Of a DNA stretch of 51,770 nt, positions 127-51,770 are shown in pieces. A model generated the notes under the pieces. The model had not been told where the DNA came from. It worked only from the letters and a program-made list of their open reading frames with translations, and ran no database searches. Positions within the stretch are counted from its first letter, which is position 1. Each line of letters starts with the position of its first letter. The stretch spans positions 1-51,770 of IMG/VR virus record IMGVR_UViG_3300020020_000041; one strand, written 5' to 3'. Origin of the DNA: a virus. Both the position numbers and the translations under genes were made by a program.

Positions 127-141
127 GTTCGCGTCAGTCAT
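1..141 (-). CDS. Small Cys-containing protein, 5' part (gene spans the circle junction)
   Basis: The ATG is at 141 and overlaps the end of the MuF-like gene by 8 bases. Reading leftward runs off the window at base 1 and continues exactly at 51604, ending with TGA at 51494-51496, for 83 residues in all. The protein starts MTDANAIRLPSCSFCKRFN, with a CxxC pair near residues 12-15 and a third Cys near residue 33, so a small metal-binding fold is possible. It lies directly behind the MuF-like gene in the same transcript. No family was recognised. The intact reading frame across the join is the best evidence that the genome is circular or circularly permuted. Confidence 0.75.
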   Translation of the reverse strand, partial: MTDANAIRLPSCSFCKRFNIPVRSPSGPAPLTCEAFPDGIPDPILRA

Positions 142-3100
142 CGATAAATTTCCTCACCGGCGGTCCTTTGTACTTTTTGTAACTCGCCAGAACGTCCGGC
201 GGAACGGTTTCGCCCATCATCAGTTTCGTATAGGTTTCGGCGACGAACTCGGCCTGATTCGTTAGCGCGTAGTGCGAGATTGTTTGCGCGCCGCGGTAAT
301 CGGTCGGACGGATCGGACGTCCGGCGAGATCCATCATATCGACGTCGCCGAGCGACCTGCTATGCAGATAGTGACCGTATTCGTGCGTCATCGCGTGGCG
401 TTCGTCTGGCGTCGACAGGAATCCGCGGTCGAATTGTTGCTTTTGGAACAGTCGCGGATTCGACCAATAGTCCGCCGTGTAGTGAATTGAGATCTGGTCG
501 ATTGACGGCGTATAGGATCCGAGCGCGCCGCCAGACGTCGCATCGCTGAATCGGATAACGGACGGAATATCGTATCCGGCGCGGCGGAGATCGTGAAACG
601 TTTTGGCGATATTTTCGAGCGCGACGCCGCCGATATCGGATCCGGACGGCGTCGCGTCGATAATCGTCATGTTCAGATTGTTTTCGATATAGTCCCGCGA
701 CGCCGATCGCGTAAACGTCCGTTCGAACGGTTTTTTGATCGTATCGCGGACCGATTTCGGCACCGCTTTGGTGAACCGTTTCGGAAACGTCATCTCCGGG
801 AATTGGTGCGCCAGACCGCGCATCGCCTGTTCTGGCGTAATCAATCCGTACCCCATCGTTTGTTCGATCGACGTCAGTTGTTGCTGGAGTTTCGGCGATA
901 GCGTCCGGTTCGCGTTGCGGTATTGCGAGATTGAGCGTTTGACGTCCGCCGGACGCGCCGAGCGGAACGTCGACCGATCGGCGACGCGCCGTCCGGTTTT
1001 GAGCGCCGCCCAATCGATATCGGCGGCGCCGAGTTTGCGGAGATATTTCGCCGGAACTAGTCCGCCGTATTGCGATTCGATTAGTTCGATCGCCTCGCCG
1101 AACGAGATTTCGCCGGTTGCGAGTTTCGGTTCGAAAAAATTGATCTGATTCCGGATTTGCGTCATCCGTTCGTCTGGTCCGCCGAAATTCGTTTTGACGA
1201 AATCGCGGAATTCCGATTCGGTCGCGTCTGGCGCGAATACGATTTCGTCGATCTCGGCGCCGCGGAGTTTCGGTCCGATCGCGTCCGGAACGTAATCCGG
1301 ATCCGAGCGGCGTTTGAGTTGCGCGGTGAGATCTGGCATCGGCGGCATTTCGGCGCGGACGTCGATCCAGACGGCGTCGATCTGGTCCTGTAGCGCGGCG
1401 CGTTCGGCGGCGTATTTTTCTTTATCGAGAACGCGTTGTTTGTCGAATAGTTTGTGCGACCGCGGTTTCGCCGTGATCGAGTTTTCCGTATGGAATTGGA
1501 GTTCGAAATACTGTCCGTTTGGCGTTTCGAATATCGAGTTGATTCCGACGTAACCGTCGCCGTCCCAGAAATTTTTCGCGCGGATCTGTTTATTGCCGGC
1601 GCGGATCAGATCGTCCGTTATTGAGAAAACCATTTCCTCATACGTTGCCGGATTGTTCGTTACCGCGGTATAGCGCAGGTTATCGAATAGGTTCTCGGAT
1701 ACTTTGTCGACGGACCAGCCTTTTTCGTTGACGTCGCCGATGATTTTCCGTCTGGTCGAAACGCGCGTTTTGAGTCGGTTTTTGAACTGTTCGAACCGGA
1801 CGTCCGCGCCGGTTAGCGTCGACGCCGATTCGAACGCCGTCGTAAGTTGCGCGGAAACCGTCGCTTCCTCGAGGATCGCTTTCGAGATCAACCGATCGGC
1901 GGCGCCGGTCGCTTCATTGGCGATCGCGCGGCGCCGGCCAGAATCGGCGACGTTTTCGAGTCGATCGTTGATATTCGCGGTGAGTCCGTCGATCGCCGGC
2001 GGATCCGCGCGGACCGCGGCCCAGACGTCATCGATCTGGCGTTCGAGATCGTTCCATTCGGCGGCGTCCGCGACGCGATCGAGTTTCCGTTGCCGTTTGT
2101 AGAGTGGGTGCGACAGGTTGTCCTTTGCGTCGAGCGTCCGCGCGGTATGGAATTGCAATTCGAACGGTTGTCCCGCCGGCGTTTCGAATACCGCGTTTAC
2201 GCCGACATATCCGTCGCCGTCCCAGAAATTTTTGACCCGTAGCGTTCGATATCCCTCGGATTGCAGCGCGTCGATCGCGTGCGTAACGCCGAACGAATAG
2301 GCATCTTCCTTGAGTTCGTACGTATAGCGGAGATTGTCGAACAGACCGTCTGCCGCCTGTTCGATCGTTCGCCCTTTGGCGTTCGCGTCGCCGGCGAGTT
2401 TCGGAACCGTTGAGTCGACGGTTTTCAGCCGGTTTTTGAGTCCGAACAGTTCGCCGTCGATCTCGCCGCCGATCGTCCGGAGTAACGCCGTGACCGCCGG
2501 TTCCGCCGCGGTCGCTTTGGCGATCAGCGATTTCGTCGCCGCCAGAATCCGCGGATCCGATTCGTCGAATTGCGGCGTGAATTTGAAAACGGACGGCGCC
2601 GCGTTGTTGAGTCCGAGTTCGTCGCGGAGTTGCGCGATAACGTTCGGAATTTGCGATCGGTCGACGTACGGCGACAGAAAACACAGACAGTGCGGGTGGT
2701 CCGGATAGCGCGGTAACGAACCCTTTGGATACACGCCGGCGACGCGGATCGCCGGATCTGTTGCGGACGCGTTGAGATTGCAGCGATCGAGTTCCGGGTG
2801 CGATCCGGATAGCGTCCATTTGATTCCGGTAACGAACCGGTTGTGCGCCGCGGCGTTCTCGACGCCCTGACCGTGGGATCTGGTTATTTCGGTCCGCGCC
2901 AGACGCCGCGCCGGATAGGATCCCGGTCCGTACGCGATCGGATATTCGGTCGCGATCGATTTCGGTTGTCCGGGAATAATCTCCCCTTTTTCGTTGCGTT
3001 TCGGTCGCAGATCCGGATAGAGATATTTTTCGACGCGGCGCGCCATATCCATTGCGGACTCGCCGACGGCGATCCCCTCACGGATCGCGCCGTCGATCTG

Positions 3101-3334
3101 GCGCCGCGTTTCGTTTCTGGCGTCCCACAATCGGTCGCTCAACCGGTAACCGTCCGCGCGGACCCAGATCCGCTGCGTATCCAGATTCGCGGCGGCGGTG
3201 AGTCTGGCGGTCGCGGCGGTATCGCCGGTATGAACGCCGTACAGCCATTGATTTTCGTCCGCGACGGTTTCGAACGGCGGAACCAGATCAATCGACGGCG
3301 CCAGAACGTCGCCGGTTTTGGTTTTATCTGCCAT
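134..3334 (-). CDS. MuF-type minor head protein with two RelA/SpoT-like domains and a zincin domain
   Basis: This 1066-residue protein follows terminase and portal. Residues ~85-225 look like Mu F/SPP1 gp7 minor head protein (RRLARTEITRSHGQ, then HPHCLCF near 213-219). Two homologous units follow, ~296-445 and ~516-665. Each has the ppGpp-synthetase pattern RxKxxxSxxxK (R302-K312; R520-K530), an FDNLRYT motif (Asp333; Asp551), KNFWDGDGYVG and FELQFHT (Glu392; Glu611). The C-terminal region has a HEYGH zinc-protease motif at 984-988 and a possible third ligand, Glu, near 1029. Ordinary MuF proteins are much shorter. Known MuF polymorphic toxins carry variable C-terminal enzymes; here I infer virion-delivered nucleotide pyrophosphokinase and protease activities. 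The start follows the preceding gene with an 11-base overlap. Confidence 0.85.
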   Translation of the reverse strand: MADKTKTGDVLAPSIDLVPPFETVADENQWLYGVHTGDTAATARLTAAANLDTQRIWVRADGYRLSDRLWDARNETRRQIDGAIREGIAVGESAMDMARRVEKYLYPDLRPKRNEKGEIIPGQPKSIATEYPIAYGPGSYPARRLARTEITRSHGQGVENAAAHNRFVTGIKWTLSGSHPELDRCNLNASATDPAIRVAGVYPKGSLPRYPDHPHCLCFLSPYVDRSQIPNVIAQLRDELGLNNAAPSVFKFTPQFDESDPRILAATKSLIAKATAAEPAVTALLRTIGGEIDGELFGLKNRLKTVDSTVPKLAGDANAKGRTIEQAADGLFDNLRYTYELKEDAYSFGVTHAIDALQSEGYRTLRVKNFWDGDGYVGVNAVFETPAGQPFELQFHTARTLDAKDNLSHPLYKRQRKLDRVADAAEWNDLERQIDDVWAAVRADPPAIDGLTANINDRLENVADSGRRRAIANEATGAADRLISKAILEEATVSAQLTTAFESASTLTGADVRFEQFKNRLKTRVSTRRKIIGDVNEKGWSVDKVSENLFDNLRYTAVTNNPATYEEMVFSITDDLIRAGNKQIRAKNFWDGDGYVGINSIFETPNGQYFELQFHTENSITAKPRSHKLFDKQRVLDKEKYAAERAALQDQIDAVWIDVRAEMPPMPDLTAQLKRRSDPDYVPDAIGPKLRGAEIDEIVFAPDATESEFRDFVKTNFGGPDERMTQIRNQINFFEPKLATGEISFGEAIELIESQYGGLVPAKYLRKLGAADIDWAALKTGRRVADRSTFRSARPADVKRSISQYRNANRTLSPKLQQQLTSIEQTMGYGLITPEQAMRGLAHQFPEMTFPKRFTKAVPKSVRDTIKKPFERTFTRSASRDYIENNLNMTIIDATPSGSDIGGVALENIAKTFHDLRRAGYDIPSVIRFSDATSGGALGSYTPSIDQISIHYTADYWSNPRLFQKQQFDRGFLSTPDERHAMTHEYGHYLHSRSLGDVDMMDLAGRPIRPTDYRGAQTISHYALTNQAEFVAETYTKLMMGETVPPDVLASYKKYKGPPVRKFIDD

Positions 3335-3719: not shown

Positions 3720-4007
3720 TTAGACACCTTTCGGGAGTTCGATCGGATTTCCGTCCGAGTCGATAACGATCCGCGGATCGTTCGTTCGGTAGAAATTCCC
3801 CGCCGGCGGTCGCTCAACCGATCCGAGCGGAACCGGCGCGTCTGGCGGTTTCGTTGCCGATCGGGACTCGATCGCCGCGGACAACGCCGCGAACGGATCG
3901 CGCGCGGCGGCGGTTTCTATCGCCGTCGCGATTCTGGCGAGTTCTGTCGCGATCTGGTCGAGTACCCGGATCAATTCCGGCGAGTTAGATTGCGTCACCG
4001 CTAGCAC
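3720..4007 (-). CDS. Hypothetical protein downstream of portal
   Basis: 95 residues starting at GTG (4007), overlapping the portal stop by about 20 bases. The first half is helical (IATELARIATAIETAAARD), the second Pro-rich. The sequence around its start resembles the repeated motif seen at 10780 (CTAGCACC[CT]GTTTCCGG), so start-site regulation or shared ancestry is possible. No function is recognised. Confidence 0.65.
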   Translation of the reverse strand: MLAVTQSNSPELIRVLDQIATELARIATAIETAAARDPFAALSAAIESRSATKPPDAPVPLGSVERPPAGNFYRTNDPRIVIDSDGNPIELPKGV

Positions 4008-5463
4008 CCGTTTCCGGCCTGTCCGGACCCGATCCGACCATCAGCGCCGTCATTTCCTGCGCGCGTTTCTTTCGTTCGAGCATCATCGTCGCGATTTCTT
4101 TATCGTTGAGTAGTCCGGATTTTTTCAACAGAACCGCATCGTCGAGTTGTTGCAATTGAACGAGCGCGCCGACTTTCGCTTTGTCTGATTCCGCCTGCGC
4201 CGTCGGATCCAGACGTTCCGGCGCCGCGAATAGCGGTTTGATCATTTTGTTTTCGTCGAGCGTATCGATTCCGAACGCGTTCTGTATTTCGGTCGATCGG
4301 TGCGCCAGAGTTGCCCACGACGGACCGGTTGTTTTCGTTAGTTGAATCGTTTTGTCGACTAGCGGCTGTTCAGCGCGCATTAGCGCCAGACCAGACGGCC
4401 AGTCGCCGCCGGTAATTACGAATTCCGGCGTTCTGGTCGAACTCGCCGCCGCCTGTTTTTTGGCGATTAGAACGTCGATCAGTTTCGACATATCGCCGGC
4501 GTTGAGCGCGCCGACACGCGCGTCCGAGTTCGCGGACGTGATGATATAGCCCGGTCCGATATAGAGTGTTTCTTCATCGCCGTTCGCATCGATTTCCGGT
4601 TGATAACCGGTCACGAAATAGACTTGAAATCCGGTCGTTCTGGCGGCGGAAATAATGTCCCAGTGGATATCGTTGATCTGGTCCTGAATACCGATAATTC
4701 CGCCGTCGAGATCGGACATTCCGTAGGATCTGGCGCCAGACGCTTTTTGATTCGAGAAATGGATCATCGGAACGCCGAGCGGAGATCCGTTCCGTTTCAA
4801 CCACGGTTCGACCGGTAGTTTGTCGATTCCCTCGGCGGATCCGTCATACGGTTCCCAGACCGGACCGCGGAGAACGTATCGCTCAATCCGATCGTGGAAA
4901 TAGATGTTCCGGAGTCGCAGCGTTCGTTTGGATCTGGCGCCGACGTTCGGATCGCGGATCTCCCATTCTTTGACGCCGAACTCGGGTTCCTCATCTTCAT
5001 CGGTATAACAGACCCACGAACCGGTAACGCCGTCCCACCACGGTTCTAGGTGCGCGGTAACGCGACCGGCGGACGGTTCGCCGGCGGAATCGTGTTCGGT
5101 TACTTTCCAGCCGAGAATTGTCGCAACGTTGCCGTCCCGCGGCGCCGCGTAATGGATATCGTACTGTTTCCGATCCATCCGGTTTTTGATCCAGAGATCC
5201 TCATCGAGAAACGTTTGTACGTCCGGATCGTCGACGGCGAAACCGGTTAGTTCCGCGCGCGACGCGACGGTCGAAACGATTTTGTCGCAGATATTGTCAG
5301 CGAATCGTTCCGGGATAATCGGATAAATAATCCGCCGTTGTTCGGTTGTCAGAGTGCAGAATTGATCGCCGCGCGCGTATCGGCGGAACGTGTCCGTCTG
5401 GTTCGGATCGCGTGACGTCGCCGTTCGGAGTCGCGCGATCCGATCGTGAACAGATTCGGCCAT
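3985..5463 (-). CDS. Portal protein
   Basis: This 492-residue protein lies 2 bases after the large terminase gene, the standard place for a portal. It resembles SPP1 gp6/actinophage portals: an N-terminal charged segment, NICDKIVSTVASRAELTGF near residue 60, and GGIIGIQDQINDIHWDII in the middle, typical of the long helical clip/stem region. The portal forms the dodecameric ring at the capsid vertex through which DNA enters and leaves. The ATG at 5463 is preceded by a GGGGGTAGTA ribosome site that overlaps the terminase stop. Length matches the family. Confidence 0.92.
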   Translation of the reverse strand: MAESVHDRIARLRTATSRDPNQTDTFRRYARGDQFCTLTTEQRRIIYPIIPERFADNICDKIVSTVASRAELTGFAVDDPDVQTFLDEDLWIKNRMDRKQYDIHYAAPRDGNVATILGWKVTEHDSAGEPSAGRVTAHLEPWWDGVTGSWVCYTDEDEEPEFGVKEWEIRDPNVGARSKRTLRLRNIYFHDRIERYVLRGPVWEPYDGSAEGIDKLPVEPWLKRNGSPLGVPMIHFSNQKASGARSYGMSDLDGGIIGIQDQINDIHWDIISAARTTGFQVYFVTGYQPEIDANGDEETLYIGPGYIITSANSDARVGALNAGDMSKLIDVLIAKKQAAASSTRTPEFVITGGDWPSGLALMRAEQPLVDKTIQLTKTTGPSWATLAHRSTEIQNAFGIDTLDENKMIKPLFAAPERLDPTAQAESDKAKVGALVQLQQLDDAVLLKKSGLLNDKEIATMMLERKKRAQEMTALMVGSGPDRPETGASGDAI

Positions 5464-5465
5464 TA

Positions 5466-7091
5466 CTACCCCCGACGGCGGCGTTCTCGCCGTTGTGCAG
5501 TTCGATCGTTTGGATCATCCCACGGTCCGCGCGGTCCCGGATCGTTTTTCCGCGATACGGTCCGACCGGTTCCGGTGCCGATATCATACCCGTGTATTAG
5601 CGCCTGCGACGTCGCGTCGACTTGATCGTCATTCGCGCCGGCGGGGAAAACGCAGAGTTCGTCGACGTATTTCTCAATCCACGGCGCGATCGATGGGTGG
5701 GGGAGATAAACGTTGCCGGCGTCGAAATAAATCGTTACCGCGTCCGCGCGGGTGTATTTGTCGCCGTTTGGCTCAACCTCGATCATGCCCGGTACGCGCG
5801 ATTTGAGCGTGTTTACGATCGCCGGTCCGTTCGCTTTGTTCTCGATCAATAGCGGACGCGCGTCACGGTATTTGCCGGCGAACGATTCGACCGCGGTAAC
5901 CTGCGTCAGGAATGACGCGCGATCGCGGTATTGATCGAGTAAATAGGTTTCGGATCCGACGCGTCCCCAGACTTGCCCGACACAATACGAACCGGTTTCG
6001 GTTTCCTTTACGGACGCGTCCCACGATTGCCATTTCCGTTCGAGTCGCGGATGCATTGGTTTCTGGTCGCAAACGAATTCGCGCCCCGGTCCGAGTCGAA
6101 CGCGGACCGGCATCGGCGCCGGACGGTCCGCCGGATACCAGTAACGCATCGACGTCCGCTTGAATAGGTTTCCCTCGGACGCGACCGGTCGCGATTGAAA
6201 TTGCGCGTTCCACATGCGACTCGACATCGTTGCTTTGCGGCGTTCGAGTTCGGCGATCGTCCAGCGTTCCGGCCAGAGTGGTTCCCCCCATTCGCGTCCG
6301 AGCGGATCTGGTTTCCCCGGTTCTGGTTCCGCGATCGCTTGAAACTCGACGACGGTCCATTGATCGGAATTCGGATCGTCCGCCGCGGCGCGGAGTAATC
6401 GACCGATTAGATCGTCCTCATTCCAGCGCGTCGCGATAACGATCACGGCGCCGCCCGGTTGCAGACGCGGATACGCGGTGTCGGTATACCAGTCCCAGAC
6501 AGATTCCCGAACCGTTTCCGAATCCGCCTCGGCGATATTTTTTACGTAATCGTCGATTAGCAGGATATTGGCGCCCATTCCGGTAACGGCGCCGGTTACG
6601 CCGGCGGCGTTGTATTCGCCGCCGAAATTGGTTTCCCATTGCTCAACCGCGGCGCGTTGTCCGGAGATCGTTACGTTCGGAAACGGAAACCGCGGATCCG
6701 CAACATGGTTTCTGGCGCGGCGCGAGATCCGGTTCGCGAGTTTGGCGACGTACGAACAGCAGATAATCGCGTGCTGCGGGTGCCGTCCGAGATACCACGA
6801 TGGGAATTTGATCGACGCGAGTTCGGTTTTGCCGTGGCGCGGCGGAAACGTAACGATCAGCCGCTTGATCGCGCCAGACTCGACGGATTCGAGCGCGGCG
6901 GCGAGTGCGTAATGAACGCGCGACGGTTCGTACGTCGGCGTCATTCGTTTGGCGTAATCGATCAACGATATTTCGCCAGACTCGGCGAACGGCGCGTCGA
7001 TAAACGCGTCAATCCGATCGGCGAACCGATCCAGTAGAAATTTCTCTAACCCCTGTGGCGATTCGGGCAAGCGCGCCGCGATCGTTGACAT
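5466..7091 (-). CDS. terL: Terminase large subunit (packaging ATPase/nuclease)
   Basis: 541 residues from ATG 7091. Walker A is FPPRHGKTE (Lys near 88), Walker B is ILLIDDY (Asp near 180) and the coupling motif is VIVIATRWNEDD near 216. The C-terminal RNase H-like nuclease part shows SWDAS, LLIENKANG and NDDQVDA acidic positions. It pumps and cuts the phage DNA at the portal. A TTG 6 bases upstream is an alternative start. The start overlaps the preceding small-subunit gene by about 80 bases, which is long; an internal start would remove part of the N-terminus but not the ATPase. Confidence 0.95.
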   Translation of the reverse strand: MSTIAARLPESPQGLEKFLLDRFADRIDAFIDAPFAESGEISLIDYAKRMTPTYEPSRVHYALAAALESVESGAIKRLIVTFPPRHGKTELASIKFPSWYLGRHPQHAIICCSYVAKLANRISRRARNHVADPRFPFPNVTISGQRAAVEQWETNFGGEYNAAGVTGAVTGMGANILLIDDYVKNIAEADSETVRESVWDWYTDTAYPRLQPGGAVIVIATRWNEDDLIGRLLRAAADDPNSDQWTVVEFQAIAEPEPGKPDPLGREWGEPLWPERWTIAELERRKATMSSRMWNAQFQSRPVASEGNLFKRTSMRYWYPADRPAPMPVRVRLGPGREFVCDQKPMHPRLERKWQSWDASVKETETGSYCVGQVWGRVGSETYLLDQYRDRASFLTQVTAVESFAGKYRDARPLLIENKANGPAIVNTLKSRVPGMIEVEPNGDKYTRADAVTIYFDAGNVYLPHPSIAPWIEKYVDELCVFPAGANDDQVDATSQALIHGYDIGTGTGRTVSRKNDPGPRGPWDDPNDRTAQRRERRRRG

Positions 7092-7686
7092 TCTCAATTA
7101 CCAACTGCCATAACCGGTCGATTATGAGCATCCCTTGTTCGCTAGTGATCATCATTTGAGCGTCGACCAGCCGGCGCCGTTCCGTATCGACGATCCGGCG
7201 CCGGCGTTCGATTAGCGAAACGGCGCGATCCTGCGCCGATAGCGCGGAGTTCTCCGCGGCGACGATCGCGCGCATCGCGTCCGTTGCGTCGAGTAGTCCG
7301 GCGGCGTCCTTTTGCTGGGCGGCGAGATCTCGATCGGCGAATAGTTTTTTGAGCGTCCGCCAGTTCTCCGCGGATCCGCCAGACGCCGCCGCGGACAACG
7401 CGTCCGCGACCATCGAATCGATCAATCCGATTTCGTCTGACAGATCCAGAATCGACGCCGAGATCCGCGACCGATCGTAAACGTCGACCAGATTCGCCGG
7501 AATTACGGACGAATAGCGACCGTGTTTGTACGTCGGATGACTCGGACCGGCGGGATAGGATTTGCCGCCGTGGAGTCGACAGCGTCCGTTTGGCATTGCC
7601 CACGCTAGGCATTTGGCGCCGGTCCGTCTGGTTTTCGCGCCGCAACGTTTCGGCGACGGTCGATCGGTTGTTATCCGGTTTGTCAT
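7009..7686 (-). CDS. terS: Probable terminase small subunit (HGGK-type)
   Basis: A 225-residue protein just upstream of terL. The N-terminal part holds a Cys/His cluster, CGAKTRRTGAKCLAW then GRCRLHGGKS, the signature of the HGGK family often found at the small-terminase position in actinophages and other phages. The rest is helical and charged (RAVSLIERRRRIVDTERRR), fitting an oligomerising DNA-recognition subunit. The ATG at 7686 is preferred; an upstream start at 7773 would overlap the CmoA-like gene by about 50 bases. No strong ribosome site is visible, so coupling to the upstream gene is likely. Confidence 0.75.
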   Translation of the reverse strand: MTNRITTDRPSPKRCGAKTRRTGAKCLAWAMPNGRCRLHGGKSYPAGPSHPTYKHGRYSSVIPANLVDVYDRSRISASILDLSDEIGLIDSMVADALSAAASGGSAENWRTLKKLFADRDLAAQQKDAAGLLDATDAMRAIVAAENSALSAQDRAVSLIERRRRIVDTERRRLVDAQMMITSEQGMLIIDRLWQLVIENVNDRGALARIATGVREISTGSVRRSD

Positions 7687-7724: not shown

Positions 7725-8579
7725 TTACTTGATCGCGATCCAGCCGGCGAAATTGACCCATCGCCAGAAACAATCGACCTCACGGAAACCGGCGTCGCGG
7801 AGTAGTTGTTCGTTCATTCTGGCGGAAATCGGGACTTGAACGCCCTCTAACGCGAACCGTTTCCGTTCGATTTCGTCCGTTGTATATCCGTTGTCGCGTT
7901 TGAGTCGGTGATACCGATCGACGAAAACCGTATCGAGCGCGGCGCCGTCTGGCAGGACTTTTTCGACCAGAACGAACGCGCCGCCCGGATTGAGCGAATC
8001 CCAGACGCGGCGGACGATCGGAATCCGGTAATTGATCGGAACGAACATCAGCGTTAGAACGGACAGAACGATCGACGCGTCGACGAACGGAAACCGATCG
8101 GTCCGGAGATCGGTTTTCTCGATCCGGACCAGATCGCCGGGATAGGTTGCGAACCGGAGTTTCGCGGCGGCGATCATCGGATCCGAGATTTCGAGTCCGA
8201 CGTAACGGTTGCCGGCGCCGAACCGGTTCAGAAACGGAACGAACGCCTCGCCGCGGGACGTTCCGAGATCGGCGATCGTCGAGTCTGGCGTCACGAACGG
8301 CGCCGCCAGATCGAACACGAGCGCGCGCATCTGGCGGTAATCGGGGATCGATCGATCGAGCATATCGTCGAATACGTCCGTAACCGATTGATCGAACTCC
8401 CACCGTTCGGTTGCCGGCGTATGTCCGAGCGAACTCGCCGGCGCGATCGGTTGCGCGTCTGGTTTGACGTCGCCGCGGAGTTGTTCGGCGCCAGACTCGG
8501 CGAGAACGATCCGATCCGAATCGGCGTATTCGTTCGGCGCGGTCGGTTTCCGGAAATAGTGGGAGAAATCTCTAACCAT
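7725..8579 (-). CDS. CmoA-like carboxy-SAM synthase
   Basis: A 284-residue class I SAM-fold protein resembling bacterial CmoA, which converts SAM and prephenate to carboxy-SAM (Cx-SAM). N-terminal FDQSVTDVFDDMLDRSIPDY (63-82) matches the E. coli CmoA segment [20 protein letters not shown]. Motif I is IADLGTSRGE (102-111). LNPGGAFVLVEK (196-207), RLKRDNGY and EIERKRFALEGV also align. Arg241 falls at E. coli Arg199, the residue that grips the Cx-SAM carboxylate. The C-terminal FWRWVNFAGWIAIK matches the CmoA end. The start overlaps the DNA methyltransferase stop by 8 bases. No CmoB partner is present, so a use in DNA rather than tRNA modification is inferred. An ordinary methyltransferase of the same fold is the alternative. 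Confidence 0.85.
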   Translation of the reverse strand: MVRDFSHYFRKPTAPNEYADSDRIVLAESGAEQLRGDVKPDAQPIAPASSLGHTPATERWEFDQSVTDVFDDMLDRSIPDYRQMRALVFDLAAPFVTPDSTIADLGTSRGEAFVPFLNRFGAGNRYVGLEISDPMIAAAKLRFATYPGDLVRIEKTDLRTDRFPFVDASIVLSVLTLMFVPINYRIPIVRRVWDSLNPGGAFVLVEKVLPDGAALDTVFVDRYHRLKRDNGYTTDEIERKRFALEGVQVPISARMNEQLLRDAGFREVDCFWRWVNFAGWIAIK

Positions 8580-10200
8580 CGATCTGGTCCTTTCGGTTGA
8601 GCGAATCGAGAATCGCGGCGATCTCGACGGCGACGGCGCGCATCATCAGCGGCGGAACGGCGCGACCCAGACGTTCCCACTGTTGCGCGTAGGTTCCGGT
8701 CAGTTCGAAATCGTCCGGAAACGAACAGATCCGGCGTAATTCCGGAATCGAGAATTTCCGCCGTTCGAACGGGTGCATGATTGTCGCGATCGACGGATCG
8801 CCGCCGGACGCGGTTAGCGTTCCGGCGGCGTCGTCCGGATCGGTTCGGACCAGAGAAAAAAATTTGCCAGATTGCGCGCCGGGTTTGAGTTTCCCCCATT
8901 CGTCGCCGATCGCGTAACCGGTAACGTCGAGTCCGGATTCGACCGCGGTCCGCCGGCGTTCGGCGATCGTTTTCCGTTTCGGCGGATCTGGCGCCGGCGG
9001 CGTTCCGGTTTCGATCCGCCAGCCCTGTTGTCGACCGCCGCCAGATCCGAGAATCGTCGCCATTGGTTCGTTGAGCGCGTCGACGTCTGGTAACGCGAAA
9101 TCGCCTTTCGTCCGGTTCGTAATCCGGACCGGCGGTTCTGGCGCCGGCGGCGTTCCGGTTTCGACAGAAAACGCGAATCCGGAGTTATCGCCAGACGCGC
9201 CGGCGGTAACGGTCGGTAACGGTTGATCGAGCGGGATTTCCTTTCCTTGCCGATCTGGTCGCGCGCCGGTTCCGTAACGAACGCGGACCGATCGCGACGC
9301 TTGAACGGCGCCCATTGGAATATCAGTTCCGTAATCGGCGTGACGATCGAATCCGGTCGCGCCCTCGATCTGGTCGCCGGATCCTAACCACGGAATCGCG
9401 TCGCGGACCGAATAGCGGTATTTGAGCGGATCCGGAAACCGCGGTTCGGCGTCGAGATCGTTCCGGACGCCGATAAATATGATCCGTTGCCGCTTTTGCG
9501 GAACGCCCAACCATTGCGCGTCGAGTAACCGCGCGCGGACGTTGTATCCGGCGTCGATCATCGCGCGCAGGATAATCTTGAAATACCCTTTCGCGGTCCC
9601 TTTGACCAGACCGGAAACGTTCTCGGCGACGAACGTTTTCGGTTGCAGATCGCGGACCAGACGGACGAATTCGAAAAACAGATCGTCCGAGCGTTGCGCG
9701 GTATCCGAGTATCGCGAAACGGTCCCCCACTTTTTTTCGCGTTTGCCGGCGGTTGAGAATGACGCGCAGGGCGGAGAACCTTCCAGACAGTCGATTTCGC
9801 CGATCGGAATTCCGGTCGCGTTGACGATATCGAGCGCGGAGATCTGGCGGATATCGGCGTCCGAGATCAGCGTTCCCGGTTCGGCGTTTGCCGCGTACGT
9901 ATCGCGCGCCGCCGGAACGAATTCGTTCGCCCACGCGACAGAGAAACCGGCGAGTCGAAATCCGAGACAGGATCCGCCGGCGCCGGAAAACGTCGAAACG
10001 AGTTTGTATCCGTTTTTGGGAATCGCGCGGATCTCGGCCATTGACGGAACGGCGTAGGGCGGTTTTGTCAGATCTGGCGGCGGCGGCGGCGGGATATCGA
10101 GCGGAACGGCGAGTTCGCTATGTGTCCAGAGATTACCGTGAGTCTGTACGGTCGGCGACGGATCGTCGACCTGAACGCGCGGTACGATCTGGCGCGTCAT
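8572..10200 (-). CDS. C5-cytosine DNA methyltransferase with motif X Asn replaced by Arg (predicted carboxymethyltransferase)
   Basis: 542 residues from an ATG at 10200 that overlaps the ParB-like stop (ATGA). All Dcm-family motifs are present: motif I STFSGAGGSCLG (69-80), catalytic SPPCASFS with Cys145, AENV (192-195), QKRQR (235-239), a long target-recognition region and motif X near 512. Motif X normally reads G-N-[SA]-V; here it reads LGRAVPP, with Arg513 (codon CGC at 8664-8662) in place of the Asn that contacts the cofactor. Lys/Arg at this position is reported to make engineered M.MpeI use Cx-SAM. The next gene is CmoA-like. I infer transfer of a carboxymethyl group to cytosine C5. 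The target site is unknown. Repeats ETGTPPAPEPP/ETGTPPAPDPP lie in the recognition region. Confidence 0.92.
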   Translation of the reverse strand: MTRQIVPRVQVDDPSPTVQTHGNLWTHSELAVPLDIPPPPPPDLTKPPYAVPSMAEIRAIPKNGYKLVSTFSGAGGSCLGFRLAGFSVAWANEFVPAARDTYAANAEPGTLISDADIRQISALDIVNATGIPIGEIDCLEGSPPCASFSTAGKREKKWGTVSRYSDTAQRSDDLFFEFVRLVRDLQPKTFVAENVSGLVKGTAKGYFKIILRAMIDAGYNVRARLLDAQWLGVPQKRQRIIFIGVRNDLDAEPRFPDPLKYRYSVRDAIPWLGSGDQIEGATGFDRHADYGTDIPMGAVQASRSVRVRYGTGARPDRQGKEIPLDQPLPTVTAGASGDNSGFAFSVETGTPPAPEPPVRITNRTKGDFALPDVDALNEPMATILGSGGGRQQGWRIETGTPPAPDPPKRKTIAERRRTAVESGLDVTGYAIGDEWGKLKPGAQSGKFFSLVRTDPDDAAGTLTASGGDPSIATIMHPFERRKFSIPELRRICSFPDDFELTGTYAQQWERLGRAVPPLMMRAVAVEIAAILDSLNRKDQIDG

Positions 10201-12128: not shown

Positions 12129-12743
12129 TTAGAACCACCCACCGCTATCGTCGATCCGTTCGATTTCGTCCTCAGTCATCGTATAACCGGCGAGATCTGA
12201 TTCGTCCGGAACGATATCGCCGAGATCCGAGCGGTCGATCGCGTCGAATTTCATGTGCCGATCGACGATCCGGAAAAACGGTCGCTCAACGCCAGACAGT
12301 CCGATTCCGCACCAGACGTGAACGCAGCGCGACTTTTGCGCCAGAACCATATAACCGGTTAGGAGAACGCCGTCCGTATCGATCTCGAACGACCAGCCGA
12401 CGCGATCGGCGCCGTTATCGAGAATCGCGTCGAAATCGCCGCCGGGTTCGAAATCGAGATCGACCAGATTATCGACGTACATATCGTCTGATTCGAGCGA
12501 ATCGATAAACGTATCGATTCCGGTTTTGGCGATTCCGCGATACGCGTCCGCGGCGTCTGACGTCGAGTCGCTAACGGTTGCCATTGTCAGAACGAGAACC
12601 GGACCGCCGGCGAAAATATCGTCCTTTTCGAACTGGCGCGATATTCCGTAATCGGACGCCGCCGCCGGTTTGAGATTGAGTCCGCCGGCGATTCCCGCGG
12701 CGGCGAGTCCGCCGAGTAATTGTCGGCGCGATAGAGATTTCAT
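12129..12743 (-). CDS. Exported protein with a twin-arginine (Tat) signal peptide
   Basis: 204 residues beginning MKSLSRRQLLGGLAAAGIAGG: a twin-arginine motif at residues 6-7, a hydrophobic core, and a likely signal peptidase site after PAAA (about 29). The mature part is acidic and soluble, with two Cys in CVHVWCG. Tat substrates cross the host membrane folded, so this product probably acts outside the host membrane or cell wall during infection. A strong AAAGGATC ribosome site precedes it. No enzymatic family was recognised. Tat signals are rare in lytic phages; superinfection exclusion is one possibility. Confidence 0.75.
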   Translation of the reverse strand: MKSLSRRQLLGGLAAAGIAGGLNLKPAAASDYGISRQFEKDDIFAGGPVLVLTMATVSDSTSDAADAYRGIAKTGIDTFIDSLESDDMYVDNLVDLDFEPGGDFDAILDNGADRVGWSFEIDTDGVLLTGYMVLAQKSRCVHVWCGIGLSGVERPFFRIVDRHMKFDAIDRSDLGDIVPDESDLAGYTMTEDEIERIDDSGGWF

Positions 12744-28635: not shown

Positions 28636-31600
28636 TCAGGACCACATCGCCGCGAAATGCGGATCGTTGTTCGCCGAACCGGTAACGCTGAACGACGTAT
28701 TCGCGGCGAACGTCGACGGTCGCGTCGCCGCGGACGAAACCAACCGGCCTGAGTTGATCTGGTCACCGGCGCCGGCGCGCAACGCCTGAACCGTTGTCGC
28801 CGACGAACCGTATATGATCCAGAGATGGTCGCCCGGAACGACGCCAGAAACCGGAACCGTAAACGCCGTGATACCGGTACTGCCGAATCCGGTCGCCGCG
28901 TTGACGAATCCCATCCGCGTCAACAGAACCGCCGTCGCCAGCGCCGGCGTCCCTTTGGCGATTCCGACTTCGGCCCACGTAATACCAGCCGCCGCCGTCG
29001 CGACGTAGCAGCGGAACGTTACTGACGTCGCCGCGATCGGGCAGACGCCCAGATAAACCGCGTACGTCGCCGCGCTGGATTGCGACGTAACGTTTCCGGA
29101 AACCAGCGTAAAACCGGGCGGATAAATCAGAATCGGCGACTGGTAAATATCCGGTCCCCACGTTCCGTCGCCGCGGAGAACGGTCGCCGCGGACGGCGTT
29201 CCGGATCCCATCCGGGCCGGCGCGATCGTTCCGCTTTGGATCGCGGATCCGTCGAGCGCGGATCCGGTCGCCGCGTTCGTATGGTTGTGACCGGCGTTCG
29301 AGAAATTCGCGATCGACGGCGTTGTCAGAACCGGCGAATTGTTGAAAACCGCCAGACCGGAACCGGTTTCGTCCGAAACGATTGCGGCGAGTTGAGCGGA
29401 CGTCATCGCGGCGATCGCCGCGGCGCCGATCTGTCCGCCGCCGGCGGCGTTCTGGTGCGTATGTCCCGCGTTCGAGAAATCGGCGATCGTCGGCGTTGTC
29501 AGCGTTTTGTTGGTTAGCGTTTGCGTCGCCGTTGTTAGCGCGACCGGTATTCCGGAAACCTGAACGGTTCCCGTTCCTTTCGGAATCAGTTGAATCGCGA
29601 TATTCGCGTCCGCGCCGAGCGCCGAAATAATCGGTTGAGAACCAGACGGAACCGCGGAGAAATCGAGCAGGTTCGCGGCGCCAGCGAAACCGGTAAACGT
29701 AACGACGCGGAGTCCGTTCGCCGTATCGAGAATTTCGTTTATCCGCGGACTGGTTAGCGTTTTGCCGGTTAGCGTTTGCGTATTCGTTGTCCCGACAACG
29801 GCGCCGGTCGCGCCATGCGCCGCCGTTGCCGCGATATGCGCCGTCGACGCCGATAGCGCGGTATCGATCGTCGCGTGGGAGTTTGTTCCGGCGTTGAGTA
29901 GCGCGGCGTGGTCGATCTGTCCGCCGCCGGCGGCGTTCGCGTGATTGTGCGCGGCGTTCGTAAACGAACCGATCGTCGGCGCGACTAGCGTTTTTCCGGT
30001 TAGCGTCTGGTTGCCAGATAGGGTGACAACCTCGACGCCGCCGGCGCGGACGCGTCCGGTTCCTTTGGCGATCAGGTCGAGATGGATATTCGCGTCCGCG
30101 CCGAGCGCCGCCAGAAACGGCGCGGCGCCGGCGTCCGCGTTGCTGATTTGCAGGTAATTGACACCCGCGAACGCCGGTTCGATATCGAGAACCATCGCGC
30201 CGTACGGATCGCGGATTTCGCTAGTCCGGAAACTCGAAATCGTTTTGTTCGATAGCGTTTCGGTTCCCGCCGGCGTAACGTAATCGGTTCCCGCGGTCGC
30301 GATTCCGAGAACGCCGGCGGTTAGTTTGGCGAGTCCAGATCCGGTCGCGCGTTTGATAATTTTGCCGGTTGTTCCGCCGAATAGCGCGATTTCGGAATCG
30401 ATCGCCGCCGCCGGTCCGGTTACGTCGCCAGATCCGCCGCCACCCGTTCCCGCCGGAACCGCCCACGTTCCGTCGCCGCGCCAGAATGTCGTCGGTCCGG
30501 CGCCGCCGCCGCCGCCGAGATTCGCGACCGGCAGGTTGCCAGATACCGCGGTCGCCAGCGGAATATTCGAGAACGTATTCGACGCGCCGGATAGCGTTTT
30601 GTTCGTAACCGTATCGGTTGAGTTCGTTGTCAGGATCGGCGCGCCGTTCGCCTGTACGCGACCGGTCCCCTTGCCGGCGAGTAACAGGTCGATATTGGTA
30701 TCGGATCCGAGCGCCGCCAGAAACGGCGCGCCCAACGTCGGCGCGTTCCGGATCTCGACGTAATTTACCGCCGACGCCGCGGTCGGCAGGTTGAGCGACA
30801 GGTTTCCGTTTGCGTCCCGGATCGATCCGATCCGCGGATTCGTCAGCGTTTTGTTGGTTAGCGTTTGCGTCGCGGACGTTGTAACGATCGGAACGCCGTT
30901 GATCTCGACGGTTCCGGTTCCTTTCGGGTAAATCTGTAGACCGATATTCGCGTCCGAACCAGACAGATAAATCGACAACGGCACGCCGGTCGCCGAGTTG
31001 CCGATTTCGAGATAGTTCACCGCGGACGGCGAATACGCGAACGCCAGATTCCGGGCGCCGGCGGGATCGTCGATCCGCGCGATCCGCGGTCCGGTTAGCG
31101 TCGGCGCCGTTGCGAAAACGGCGAGTCCGGTTCCGGTTTCGTCCGAGATTATTCCGGCGAGTTGCGCGGACGTCATCGCCGCCAGACCAGACGCGCCGAT
31201 CTGTCCGCCGGACGCCGCGGACGTATGGGCGTGTTGCGCGTTCGAGAAATCGGCGATCGTCGGCGACGTCAGCGTTTTGCCGCTCAACGTTTGCGCGTCA
31301 GTTGTTCCGACCACAACGCCAGACGGCGCGGTTTTCGTCGCCCACGTCGATAGCGTCGCCGAATACGGCTGAACGTCCGTTCCGATAACGAGTCCGAGTC
31401 CGGTTTGCGCCGTCGCCTGCGACGTTCCGCCGGTTCCGCCGCGCGCGACCGGTAGCGTTCCGGATCCGATCGCCGCCACGTCGAGCGTTCCGCCGCCGCC
31501 GACGCTTTGGTGATTGTGGTTCGCGTTCGTAAACGTTCCGATCGTCGGCGATCCCAGAATCGGCGTCGTCAGCGTCGGCGAGTTCGCGAATACCGCGGCG

Positions 31601-33051
31601 CCGGATCCGGTTTCGTCTGACAGAACGCCGGCGAGTTGCGCGGACGTTGTCGGCGCGAAAACCGACAGGTTGTCCGCTTTGAGCGGAACGAGTGCGGTAT
31701 CGATCGAGATCGTATTGCCGGACCGCGTTAGTCCGGTTCCGGCGGTTATCGCGCCGGCGCCAGAAAACTGCGTGAATAGCAGGTTCGTCGATCCGAGAAC
31801 GATCGGATCGTTCGTCGCCAGAACCCAACCGGTATCCGCCTGCGTCACGCCGTCCGTAACGAATACGAACATTCCGGCGGTTACCTCGAACGAGTTGTTC
31901 GCATCTGGCGATCTGGTCATCGCGACCGCGGCGCCGTTCCATATCCAGATTCCGTTGTCATACGCGGCGGTTTGGTTTTTGAGGAGAACGCGATCGCCGA
32001 CGGCCATTGACGCGCCGTCGATCGGCGTTCCCGGCGCCGCGGTATTGAGATTCGCGGTCGACGCGACGCGGACGGACGCTTTGGGATCGAGTCCGGCGGC
32101 GACGGAATCGACATACGCTTTGGTCGCCGCATCCTGCGCCGCGGACGGATCGTACAGATTCGAGATTTTCTGGTTATTCCACGAAACGGTTCCCGCCGGA
32201 ACCGCCAGACTCGACAACGGAACCGCCGCCGGATCGAACGTTACGGTCGGATTTCCGGCGACGCCGGCGGGATTCGTAACGACGATCGCGCCAGATCCGG
32301 AAACGAGCGTTCGCAGATCGTACGTATTCGCCGCGATCCGCGTCAGGAATCCGGTTCCTGATTGCGCCGCGATCGACGTCAGGTCCGCGTCCGCCGGTTG
32401 ACCGCCGCCAGATCCGGCGATGACTTGATCGTCGACGTACTTTTTCGTCGCCGCGTCCTGTTGGTTCGACGGATCGGCGAGTCCGGTAATCCGCTTTGCG
32501 TTCCACGGAACCGCCGCCGTCGGCGCCGCTAACAGCGAAATCGAGATCTGATCCGGATCGACGTCGATCGTCGGATTCGCCGCAACGCCGCCGCCGTTCG
32601 TGACCACGATTTTGGTCGACGCCGCGGTTATCGTCCGCGTTGCCGCGGTTCCGGCGCCGGTTCTGGCGATTAGTCCGGTTGTTGAGAGTCCGGCGATCGC
32701 CGTCAGGTCCGCGTCGAGCGGTTGAGAACCGCCGCCGCCGGCGACGTCTGGCGCGTTCGTTATTTTGTCGAGAACGATCCGCGTCGATCCGTTCGTTCCG
32801 CCGCGTCCGAGAATCGTTCCGACCAGAACGAAATCGTCCGGCGCCAGACCAGACGCCGCGGCGAGTCTGGCGTACGGTTCGTCGTGGATCTCGCCGGTTC
32901 CGATTTCGCGGAGAATCGGATTTCCGGTCGGTGCGTCGATCGAGTCGACTTGCATCCGTTCGAGCGACGCGCCGGCGACGTTGCCGAGTCCGGCGAGTTC
33001 GATACTCCGCGCGATATCGGTTGCGAGTTTGATCGGATTCGGATCCGTCAT
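28636..33051 (-). CDS. Tail fibre / receptor-binding protein with tandem repeats
   Basis: 1471 residues from ATG 33051, overlapping the upstream stop (ATGA). The middle consists of many units like TQTLTNKTLTNPRIGSI and MTSAQLAAIVSDETGSGLAV with interspersed NAGHNH motifs, typical of trimeric phage fibre shafts. Repeats with GKTLTSP and DFSNAGH alternate irregularly. The last ~150 residues (after GDGTWGPDIYQSP) form a distinct beta-rich head, probably the receptor-binding tip. The N-terminus (MTDPNPIKLATDIARSIELA) should attach to the tail tip. Confidence 0.88.
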   Translation of the reverse strand: MTDPNPIKLATDIARSIELAGLGNVAGASLERMQVDSIDAPTGNPILREIGTGEIHDEPYARLAAASGLAPDDFVLVGTILGRGGTNGSTRIVLDKITNAPDVAGGGGSQPLDADLTAIAGLSTTGLIARTGAGTAATRTITAASTKIVVTNGGGVAANPTIDVDPDQISISLLAAPTAAVPWNAKRITGLADPSNQQDAATKKYVDDQVIAGSGGGQPADADLTSIAAQSGTGFLTRIAANTYDLRTLVSGSGAIVVTNPAGVAGNPTVTFDPAAVPLSSLAVPAGTVSWNNQKISNLYDPSAAQDAATKAYVDSVAAGLDPKASVRVASTANLNTAAPGTPIDGASMAVGDRVLLKNQTAAYDNGIWIWNGAAVAMTRSPDANNSFEVTAGMFVFVTDGVTQADTGWVLATNDPIVLGSTNLLFTQFSGAGAITAGTGLTRSGNTISIDTALVPLKADNLSVFAPTTSAQLAGVLSDETGSGAAVFANSPTLTTPILGSPTIGTFTNANHNHQSVGGGGTLDVAAIGSGTLPVARGGTGGTSQATAQTGLGLVIGTDVQPYSATLSTWATKTAPSGVVVGTTDAQTLSGKTLTSPTIADFSNAQHAHTSAASGGQIGASGLAAMTSAQLAGIISDETGTGLAVFATAPTLTGPRIARIDDPAGARNLAFAYSPSAVNYLEIGNSATGVPLSIYLSGSDANIGLQIYPKGTGTVEINGVPIVTTSATQTLTNKTLTNPRIGSIRDANGNLSLNLPTAASAVNYVEIRNAPTLGAPFLAALGSDTNIDLLLAGKGTGRVQANGAPILTTNSTDTVTNKTLSGASNTFSNIPLATAVSGNLPVANLGGGGGAGPTTFWRGDGTWAVPAGTGGGGSGDVTGPAAAIDSEIALFGGTTGKIIKRATGSGLAKLTAGVLGIATAGTDYVTPAGTETLSNKTISSFRTSEIRDPYGAMVLDIEPAFAGVNYLQISNADAGAAPFLAALGADANIHLDLIAKGTGRVRAGGVEVVTLSGNQTLTGKTLVAPTIGSFTNAAHNHANAAGGGQIDHAALLNAGTNSHATIDTALSASTAHIAATAAHGATGAVVGTTNTQTLTGKTLTSPRINEILDTANGLRVVTFTGFAGAANLLDFSAVPSGSQPIISALGADANIAIQLIPKGTGTVQVSGIPVALTTATQTLTNKTLTTPTIADFSNAGHTHQNAAGGGQIGAAAIAAMTSAQLAAIVSDETGSGLAVFNNSPVLTTPSIANFSNAGHNHTNAATGSALDGSAIQSGTIAPARMGSGTPSAATVLRGDGTWGPDIYQSPILIYPPGFTLVSGNVTSQSSAATYAVYLGVCPIAATSVTFRCYVATAAAGITWAEVGIAKGTPALATAVLLTRMGFVNAATGFGSTGITAFTVPVSGVVPGDHLWIIYGSSATTVQALRAGAGDQINSGRLVSSAATRPSTFAANTSFSVTGSANNDPHFAAMWS

Positions 33052-34190
33052 ATCGCCTGCCCCCACCGGAGAATTTTCGACAATTTCCACGTCATTAGCG
33101 CGTTTTTGCCGAGTCCGAACGATAGCGACTGAATACGCCAGATCCCTTTCGCCGCTTCATCGCCGTCGCGCGTTTCTAGGTTGAGTTTGAGCGTTTGATC
33201 GAGCGACCATTCCAGAAACGGAATCGAGACAACCGTTACCGAAACGAGCGCGGACGCGGCGTCATCCATGATTCGATCGGCGAGATCGTCGCACGCCGAT
33301 TGCGAATGGAGATTCGGATCCGAAACCGTCGGGTGCGTCAGGATTTCCGGTTTCGCCGCGGTTCCGAGTCGGAAAATCGACGTTTCCGAATCCGTATCGT
33401 TATTGATCCGGTACGCGTAAATCGGCGCGTCTGTTTTTTTCGGATCGTTGCCGATAACCGTGACCTCATTGAACAGTTTTGAGAGATCGGTTTGTCGGAC
33501 AACGTTTCCGGTAACGTTCGCGTTCGCGTTTGAGAGTTCGAGCGCCGGTTGAACGTCGCCGAGTTTGCGGAATTTGTGCGACCGGATCCGTCCGAACCGG
33601 TCCTCGAACGCCGGGATATAACCGATCGAGCGCGCCAGATCGTTGAAAACCTGTTCCCGCGTTGCGTCACTAGGCCACGAACGCCGTTTCGGTAACGTAT
33701 CGGACGCCGCCGGAATCAGAGATCGAACGCCGGCGATCGAGCATTGCGTCCGCATCGCGGTCGCGACGTTCTGTCCGGTTGCGAGTGAATACGGTTTGCC
33801 GATCCGCCGCGCACGCATTTTGTTGAGCGGTCCGCGCGCGTCGAGAATTTGCGTTCCGGATTGTTCGGTATAGGTTGTTTCTGGCGTCGGCATCACCTGA
33901 AATAGCCCCTGTTGCGCGCGTTCGATAATCTGTCCGGTTCCGTCTGGCGATTGATACCGGACGGTGAGAAACGGCGCGATCCAGTCCCGGTAATGTTGGA
34001 ATTGATCGATATCGGTAACGGTTCCGCGGAATAGCATCCCGCCGCCGGTCGACGGTTCCGCGGTTATTTGCGCCGAGTCCGTTCCGATCGATCCGGACAC
34101 GTTTTCGAGCATGTTGTTATCCGGATCCGCGCGATAGAACTCGGTGCCGATTAGCAGGTCGCCTTGATAGTACGCGTACGGAATAACCAT
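33048..34190 (-). CDS. Minor tail protein / tail hub
   Basis: 380 residues; the start overlaps the upstream stop (TGATG) and the end overlaps the fibre start. Beta-rich (FLTVRYQSPDGTGQIIERAQ) with a middle region YIPAFEDRFGRIRSHKFRKL, reminiscent of siphophage hub proteins. Position between the large tail-tip protein and fibre supports a baseplate or hub role. Confidence 0.75.
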   Translation of the reverse strand: MVIPYAYYQGDLLIGTEFYRADPDNNMLENVSGSIGTDSAQITAEPSTGGGMLFRGTVTDIDQFQHYRDWIAPFLTVRYQSPDGTGQIIERAQQGLFQVMPTPETTYTEQSGTQILDARGPLNKMRARRIGKPYSLATGQNVATAMRTQCSIAGVRSLIPAASDTLPKRRSWPSDATREQVFNDLARSIGYIPAFEDRFGRIRSHKFRKLGDVQPALELSNANANVTGNVVRQTDLSKLFNEVTVIGNDPKKTDAPIYAYRINNDTDSETSIFRLGTAAKPEILTHPTVSDPNLHSQSACDDLADRIMDDAASALVSVTVVSIPFLEWSLDQTLKLNLETRDGDEAAKGIWRIQSLSFGLGKNALMTWKLSKILRWGQAI

Positions 34191-49737: not shown

Positions 49738-50004
49738 CTATCCGGTTCCGTCGATCGCGGAGAACGATCGGATCCGATCGGATTCCGATTCGGTTATTTC
49801 GTCCATTGTCGGATCGCCCTCGATCGAATGTTTGTAGTACAGATAATCCGGATCGTCGAGCGGTATCCAGTCGCGCGTTTTATCGTCCCACCGGAACGGC
49901 GCCCATCCCGGAATTCTGGCGCGGAACAGAACGCCAGATCCGCCGCGGATTTCTGAAATCAGAAAATAGCGGAACGTCGGCGCGGTTGTTTTTCTATCGG
50001 TCAT
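49738..50004 (-). CDS. Hypothetical protein (cassette gene)
   Basis: 88 residues with CGAAAGGGGATCGCA before ATG. Aromatic, strand-like N-terminal half (FRYFLISEIRGGSGVLFRAR; WAPFRWDDKTRDWIPL) and an acidic C-terminus. No family is recognised. A hairpin with T-rich tail lies just upstream of it. Confidence 0.7.
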   Translation of the reverse strand: MTDRKTTAPTFRYFLISEIRGGSGVLFRARIPGWAPFRWDDKTRDWIPLDDPDYLYYKHSIEGDPTMDEITESESDRIRSFSAIDGTG

Positions 50005-50850: not shown

Positions 50851-50910
50851 CGGAGTTCCTTTCGAGTTCTGGCGGCGCGCCGGACCAGTTACCGAACGCG
50901 TTACGATTCC

Positions 50911-50939
50911 ATAGTACGCGATCGCGCAACCGATCGCCA
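50911..50939 (-). promoter_or_regulatory. Palindromic cassette promoter P9
   Basis: -35 TGGCGA, 17-base spacer, -10 TACTAT; core TACGCGATCGCGCA. Confidence 0.72.
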
Positions 50940-51730: not shown

Positions 51731-51770
51731 ATACCGGTCCGGTCGCCGTCTGGTCCGGCGCCGCTAACCT
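51731..51770. repeat. Inverted snap-back of 51649-51688
   Basis: The last 40 bases are the exact reverse complement of 51649-51688 (and of 45-84), with a 42-base spacer. The copy interrupts the otherwise intact 83-residue reading frame. It is best explained as a fold-back chimera at the contig end; a real hairpin end is an alternative. Confidence 0.85.

What the first reader, a model, noticed from the sequence alone, without database searches (positions are those of the whole stretch)
134..3334. MuF virion protein carrying tandem RelA/SpoT-type domains and a zincin domain
Two homologous units each keep RxKxxxSxxxK, the Asp of FDNLRYT and the Glu of FELQFHT, the key pattern of (p)ppGpp/(p)ppApp synthetases, and the C-terminus has HEYGH. 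MuF-fused toxins are known in prophages, but a MuF protein with two RSH-type domains plus a protease is unusual. Such a protein, if ejected with DNA, could alter host nucleotide pools or release its own domains by cleavage at the start of infection.
Basis: partly seen in the sequence, partly recalled or inferred. Interest (0 to 1): 0.85.

Follow-up and report, generated by a model that had tools for sequence, protein, structure and literature searches.

The report
Phage head protein with twin toxins
A phage head protein carries two copies of an enzyme that makes growth-stopping signal nucleotides, plus a probable protein-cutting domain, and the phage also seems to carry an antidote gene; it is an unusual combination of parts already known separately.

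Summary
The minus-strand ORF 134-3334 (1066 aa) follows terminase and portal and encodes a MuF head-morphogenesis domain, two SYNTH/RelA-SpoT domains (D1 ~256-456, D2 ~469-686, about 50% identical) and a C-terminal HEYGH...E domain. D1 and D2 keep every catalytic residue described for the alarmone synthetase SaEAS; the D1 model matches the SaEAS crystal structure (TM 0.80 over the target) and then Tas1. Single-domain MuF-synthetase fusions are known toxins (Apk2, which makes (p)ppApp). Here the domain is doubled and internal, before a putative metallopeptidase. None of the other ~160 loci sampled has two domains in one ORF. D1 and D2 are sisters in a tree, so they probably arose by duplication in this lineage. 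Two synthetase copies are also reported for XopAD-type effectors, and MuF-zincin proteins without synthetase occur in other phages. New here: an 88-aa gene about 1.7 kb downstream on the circular map (49738-50004) matches the IapK immunity family (E 7e-4 over 13,809 ORFs). No Aph1 hydrolase was found. The zincin fold is unconfirmed (poor model), though HExGHxxH and a distal Glu are conserved across distant virion proteins. New variant of a known kind; activity, packaging and self-cleavage are inferred.

The parts
134..3334 (-). Whole gene: MuF - synthetase D1 - synthetase D2 - linker - putative metallopeptidase, 1066 aa
2657..3175 (-). MuF/SPP1-gp7-type head morphogenesis domain (residues 54-226)
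   Evidence: phrog_1657 E 4e-36, phrog_7625 E 2e-42; low-confidence model
1967..2569 (-). Alarmone synthetase (SYNTH) domain D1 (residues 256-456); R302 K304 S308 K312, D333, R336, K368, Y376, N380, E392, Q394
   Evidence: 8vx3 E 1.4e-17; AF2 pLDDT about 90 and Foldseek to 8vx3 E 1e-11; residues
1277..1930 (-). Alarmone synthetase domain D2 (residues 469-686), sister of D1, with a 7-residue insertion; R520 K522 S526 K530, D551, R554, K587, Y595, N599, E611, Q613
   Evidence: no structure model made for D2
650..1267 (-). Mostly helical linker of unknown function (residues 690-895)
   Evidence: no family match; low-confidence model
137..649 (-). Putative gluzincin-type metallopeptidase domain (residues 896-1066): H984 E985 H988 H991 ... 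E1029, E1033
   Evidence: phrog_28013 E 2e-6; conserved in Jenst virion protein, Halorubrum virus portal fusion and MuF fusions L172-L175
49738..50004 (-). Candidate IapK-type immunity gene, 88 aa, 1.7 kb downstream of the MuF gene on the circular map
   Evidence: best window match to an IapK profile; 19.2 bits, E 7e-4 in 13,809 ORFs; 0 of 5000 shuffles reach it
50910..50930 (-). Promoter-like repeat 60 bp before the small operon (50850 down to 49738) that holds the candidate immunity gene
   Evidence: 10 copies in the window, 9 of them 49-60 bp before a called start
3985..5463 (-). Portal protein
   Evidence: phrog_104 E 8e-26
5466..7097 (-). Terminase large subunit
   Evidence: Terminase_6N/6C, phrog_38 E 6e-109

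Best explanation
A MuF-type effector protein of a tailed phage. Shown: it encodes MuF, two synthetase domains with intact active sites made most likely by duplication in this lineage, and a C-terminal HExxH domain. Inferred: a few copies enter the head with the portal; at ejection the protein or its fragments enter the bacterium, where the two synthetases move pyrophosphate from ATP to ATP/ADP (perhaps also GTP/GDP), draining nucleotides and stopping growth or metabolism. The C-terminal metallopeptidase most likely cuts the polypeptide to free the enzyme domains during assembly or after entry. An IapK-like protein (49738-50004), probably expressed from an early-type promoter, protects the producing cell until the enzyme is packaged.
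For: Profile, sequence and structure matches to SaEAS and Tas1. Full active sites in both copies despite about 50% divergence, which suggests both are kept active. RYT, GxN and [YF]H signatures as in Apk2 and SaEAS (PMC12226406, PMC12691689). Apk2 domains from Streptococcus pneumoniae and Mannheimia haemolytica prophages kill E. coli and make pppApp from ATP (PMC12226406). MuF domain and head-gene location. Candidate immunity gene. HExGHxxH...E conserved in MuF, portal and virion proteins. A C-terminal metallopeptidase is proposed to process P1 DdrB before packaging (PMC5512222).
Against: No experiment. Nucleotide choice cannot be read from sequence: SaEAS has the same motifs and makes both (p)ppApp and (p)ppGpp. 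No Aph1 hydrolase. The immunity match is weak in absolute terms and the gene is not adjacent. The zincin model is poor and has no fold match. No integrase or repressor was recognised, so the temperate lifestyle in which such toxins make most sense is not shown.
Confidence: 0.6

Rival explanations
1. The synthetase pair acts in the infected cell for the phage's own benefit (reprogramming host metabolism or excluding rival phages at the start of infection) rather than as a toxin against competitors.
For: No integrase, repressor or Aph1 was recognised; the phage has its own replication, recombination and methylation genes. Iyer et al. propose early-infection roles for such injected domains (PMC5512222).
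Against: Draining ATP would harm the phage too; Apk2 relatives are bactericidal (PMC12226406); an IapK-like gene is present.
Confidence: 0.25
2. The C-terminal HExxH domain is itself an effector that cleaves host proteins, not a self-processing protease.
For: Metallopeptidases are about 20% of MuF toxins (PMC5576092); the domain occurs without synthetases in L172-L175 and on a portal in a Halorubrum virus.
Against: It is shared by portal, MuF and other virion proteins of unrelated phages, which fits a structural or processing role as well.
Confidence: 0.3
3. The synthetase copies have diverged in substrate: one makes (p)ppApp, the other (p)ppGpp or modifies tRNA.
For: About 50% identity, a 7-residue insertion and a Tyr-to-Phe change at an invariant position in D2.
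Against: Nucleotide-site motifs are the same in both (DNLRYT, KNFWDGDGYVG[VI]N, FELQFHT).
Confidence: 0.2
4. The domains are inactive remnants kept only as filler in a virion protein.
For: No activity data for this protein.
Against: All known catalytic residues are intact in both copies and conservation is concentrated at them; open frame.
Confidence: 0.05

Closest known systems
Apk2 (MuF - adenosine 3'-pyrophosphokinase; Streptococcus pneumoniae, Mannheimia haemolytica, Pasteurella multocida, Bacteroides caccae prophages)
   Same: MuF N-terminus at the portal/terminase locus; SYNTH domain with RYT, GxN and QxHT motifs; an IapK-type gene in the genome
   Different: One C-terminal synthetase there; here two, internal, followed by a HExxH domain; iapK and aph1 adjacent there, here a distant IapK-like gene and no Aph1
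SaEAS (PDB 8vx3), exported alarmone synthetase of Streptomyces albidoflavus
   Same: Nearest solved structure; all named active-site residues align
   Different: Sec-exported single domain without immunity gene; [quoted passage not shown]
XopAD-type type III effectors
   Same: Reported to carry two RelA/SpoT copies (PMC3482391); the NCBIfam PRK09169 profile matches residues 263-646 in one co-linear stretch
   Different: Different delivery system, over 2000 aa, no MuF; sequences not fetched here
Polyvalent proteins of phages and conjugative elements (e.g. P1 DdrB)
   Same: Several effector domains in one injected protein; MPTase is the commonest domain; MuF-RelA/SpoT fusions listed
   Different: Tandem RelA/SpoT with a MuF and MPTase was not found in the parts of that paper read here
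MuF - C-terminal zincin proteins (L172-L175; part of phrog_324)
   Same: MuF plus a homologous HExGHxxH...E domain, next to a portal about 30% identical to the window's
   Different: No synthetase domains between

Membership tests
RSH/SAS SYNTH domain | SYNTH fold | tested here: met
   D1 model to 8vx3 TM 0.80 (target-normalised), also 6ox6 and 6ewz. D2 by about 50% identity to D1 and profile score; not modelled
RSH/SAS SYNTH domain | Catalytic residues D121, R124, K154, N169, E182, Q184 of SaEAS | tested here: met
   D333/D551, R336/R554, K368/K587, N380/N599, E392/E611, Q394/Q613
Apk2 | MuF N-terminal domain | tested here: met
Apk2 | Synthetase is the C-terminal domain | tested here: not met
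   Two internal copies, then 380 residues ending in HExxH
Apk2 | iapK and aph1 directly downstream | tested here: not met
   IapK-like gene 1.7 kb downstream; no HD hydrolase
Apk2 | Makes (p)ppApp only | not testable with these tools
   needs an enzyme assay
IapK immunity | Sequence profile of the family | tested here: met
   49738-50004: 19.2 bits, E 7e-4 among 13,809 ORFs; comparable to adjacent members left out of the profile
IapK immunity | Binds and blocks the synthetase | not testable with these tools
   needs a neutralisation or binding assay
Zincin-like metallopeptidase | HExxH plus downstream Glu | tested here: met
   H984, E985, H988, E1029/E1033, invariant in the six aligned sequences
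Zincin-like metallopeptidase | Three-stranded sheet with flanking helices | tested here: inconclusive
   Model pLDDT 44, no fold match
MuF virion protein | Present in the virion head | not testable with these tools
   needs virion proteomics

The most novel reading that the evidence does not exclude
A self-processing, head-packaged double alarmone synthetase: after ejection the C-terminal protease releases two synthetases with different substrates, so that one injected polypeptide hits two nucleotide pools at once, with one early-expressed immunity protein guarding the producer.
Probability: 0.12. Interest if true: 0.75.

Novelty: new variant of a known kind. Interest (0 to 1): 0.5.

Why it matters
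It shows that phage head proteins can carry more than one copy of an alarmone-synthetase effector together with a probable protease, so virion-borne effectors may be processed multi-enzyme packages. It gives a natural pair of about 50% identical synthetases in one chain for specificity studies, and a candidate immunity gene placed away from its toxin, which adjacency-based annotation would miss.

Tried and rejected
Whole-protein and C-terminal single-sequence scans of IMG/VR gave no close relative or one weak one; a portal scan gave none. Chance explanation for the tandem: rejected. Assembly-made duplication: rejected, because the copies are only about 50% identical in protein and 61% in DNA. 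An Aph1-like hydrolase: none. The gene next to the MuF gene (51030-51404) as immunity: only -1.2 bits against the first IapK profile. First immunity screens (phmmer, and an E<0.01 cut) missed 49738-50004; a profile widened with actinobacterial and viral members, without window sequence, recovered it. Alignment A5 was discarded because zincin rows were misaligned onto D2. Two phylum surveys (794 genomes, 15 with matches) showed no genome with two matches. XopAD sequences were not fetched. D2 was not modelled separately, for lack of jobs.

Full report
What is there. The minus-strand ORF 134-3334 is open over 1066 codons. Upstream on the same strand lie terminase (5466-7097), portal (3985-5463) and two small genes, the last overlapping the ORF start. 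The contig ends share 126 identical bases (1-126 = 51605-51730) followed by a 41-base inverted copy at the very end, best read as a circular assembly of about 51,604 bp with a small end artefact. The genes after the MuF gene therefore continue at 51604 downward and lead to scaffold (47272-47988, DUF4355) and the likely capsid gene.

Domains. MuF-type profiles match residues ~54-226 (phrog_1657 E 4e-36). Two SYNTH domains follow. A whole-protein phmmer search of the PDB hits 8vx3, the exported synthetase SaEAS, at E 1.4e-17, best over D1; a profile of the two domains with four Apk2-type domains hits 8vx3 at 4e-33 and Tas1 at 0.015. AlphaFold modelled D1 with pLDDT about 90, and Foldseek returns all four 8vx3 chains (E 1e-11 to 8e-10), then Tas1 and SAS2/RelP. 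The residues named for SaEAS in PMC12691689 (D121, R124, K154, N169, E182, Q184) correspond to D333, R336, K368, N380, E392, Q394 in D1 and D551, R554, K587, N599, E611, Q613 in D2. The deposited 8vx3 chain carries D121A, which explains why its sequence lacks the Asp.

Is the pair meaningful? Against 84 other domains, D1 has 22/22 and D2 20/22 of the columns conserved in at least 90% of the others, but they agree at only 41/118 poorly conserved columns. This pattern suggests selection for activity in both, not decay of one copy. In the tree D1 and D2 are sisters (99/74), and the viral single-domain protein L010 joins them next (100/94), so the simplest history is duplication in this lineage. 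Of the other loci holding the domain (four phage records, 80 viral, 77 genomic), none has two domains in one ORF. The search sampled loci by peptide pattern, so rarity outside it is not proved. Two copies are reported for XopAD-type effectors (PMC3482391), and the NCBIfam PRK09169 profile runs co-linearly over both domains here; whether that tandem is homologous as a unit was not tested.

C-terminal domain. HEYGH at 984 and EFVAE at 1029-1033 align with HEIGH...ELMPE in the Brevibacillus phage Jenst virion protein, HEVGH...EMVAE in a Halorubrum virus protein whose N-terminus is a Mu-type portal, and HEIGH...EFFAE in MuF proteins L172-L175. L172, L174 and L175 also encode a portal about 30% identical to the window's. 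So MuF-zincin looks like a recurring frame into which the synthetase pair is set. The fold itself is unconfirmed.

Immunity. Apk2 loci have iapK and aph1 directly downstream (PMC12226406). No Aph1 homologue was found here. A profile built from 47 IapK-like ORFs next to synthetase genes, no window sequence used, ranks ORF 49738-50004 first in the window (13.8 bits, next 3.7). After widening with 15 more members, nearly all next to synthetase genes, it scores 19.2 bits (E 7e-4 among 13,809 ORFs), next window ORF 5.5, best of 5000 shuffles 9.0; two immediate neighbours of synthetase genes left out of the profile in turn score 18 and 20.5. L014 and L011 also have their IapK-like gene away from the synthetase gene, by 1.3 and 4.5 kb. 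I call it a candidate; the extra members were picked by hand from the ranked list, so this is not a fully blind test.

Regulation. GTTACGCGATCGCGTACTATG occurs 10 times with up to 3 mismatches (0 expected). Nine copies lie 49-60 bp before a called start; the tenth (14659) lies about 54 bp before the ATG at 14605, inside a gene whose start was called too far upstream (sequence reading). About 1.6% of random positions fall in the 40-65 bp range. The element looks like a promoter with a palindromic operator. One copy precedes the operon holding the immunity candidate, while the MuF gene itself lies in the head operon without one. This fits early immunity and late toxin, but is inference.

Mechanism and comparison. 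The best reading is a MuF effector in the style of Apk2: packaged, ejected, making alarmones from ATP in the target cell, with a C-terminal protease that may free the domains, as proposed for P1 DdrB (PMC5512222). It is not filed as Apk2, because that family is defined by a C-terminal synthetase and adjacent immunity genes, and both tests fail. It works like an Apk2. Related variety exists: L007 combines a 2'-5' RNA ligase/2H-type domain, MuF, synthetase and DUF3626.

Verdict. Observation confirmed, interpretation partly supported, new variant of a known kind.

Noticed in passing
14659, 15103, 16233, 16628, 21838, 25900, 48771, 49529, 50910, 51459 (start coordinates): Repeated promoter-like element GTTACGCGATCGCGTACTATG with a central palindrome, followed by a leader with GC-rich inverted repeats and the motif TCGAAAGGA, about 50-60 bp before start codons; looks like a regulon with a shared operator.
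   Followed up: partly
window ends 1-126 and 51605-51770: 126-base direct terminal overlap plus a 41-base inverted end: the contig is circular and the last 41 bases are probably an assembly artefact.
   Followed up: yes
L007:3709-7620: Viral 1304-aa protein joining a 2H/LigT phosphoesterase domain, MuF, an alarmone synthetase and DUF3626: another multi-enzyme head protein.
   Followed up: partly
L017:5470-7464: Viral MuF protein with an internal synthetase followed by a C-terminal region whose sequence looks like an ADP-ribosyltransferase (YRGI...GNGTYVA) by eye; PHROGs gave no match for it.
   Followed up: partly
L165:1564-3576: Halorubrum tailed virus portal protein with a C-terminal HEVGH domain homologous to the window's: a portal-protease fusion in an archaeal virus.
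   Followed up: partly
12129-12743 (-): Phage-encoded protein starting with a twin-arginine-type signal (SRRQLLGG); a weak Pfam TAT_signal match occurs among the scanned window genes. Possible exported phage protein.
   Followed up: no
28636-33090 (-): Large gene rich in internal repeats (families D1, D4, D5, D7, D10, D13), probably a repeat-built tail or fibre protein.
   Followed up: no
window: GCGATCGC occurs 39 times against 17 expected, partly through the repeated promoter element; meaning unknown. The phage carries a C-5 cytosine methylase (8572-10200).
   Followed up: no
50368-50850 (-): Stand-alone LPD29 (large polyvalent protein associated domain 29) gene in the same small operon as the immunity candidate (sequence reading).
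   Followed up: no
L004:1168-3570: Aaphi23 Apk2-type protein has an extra ~300-residue insert between MuF and synthetase that looks intein/Hint-like by eye.
   Followed up: no
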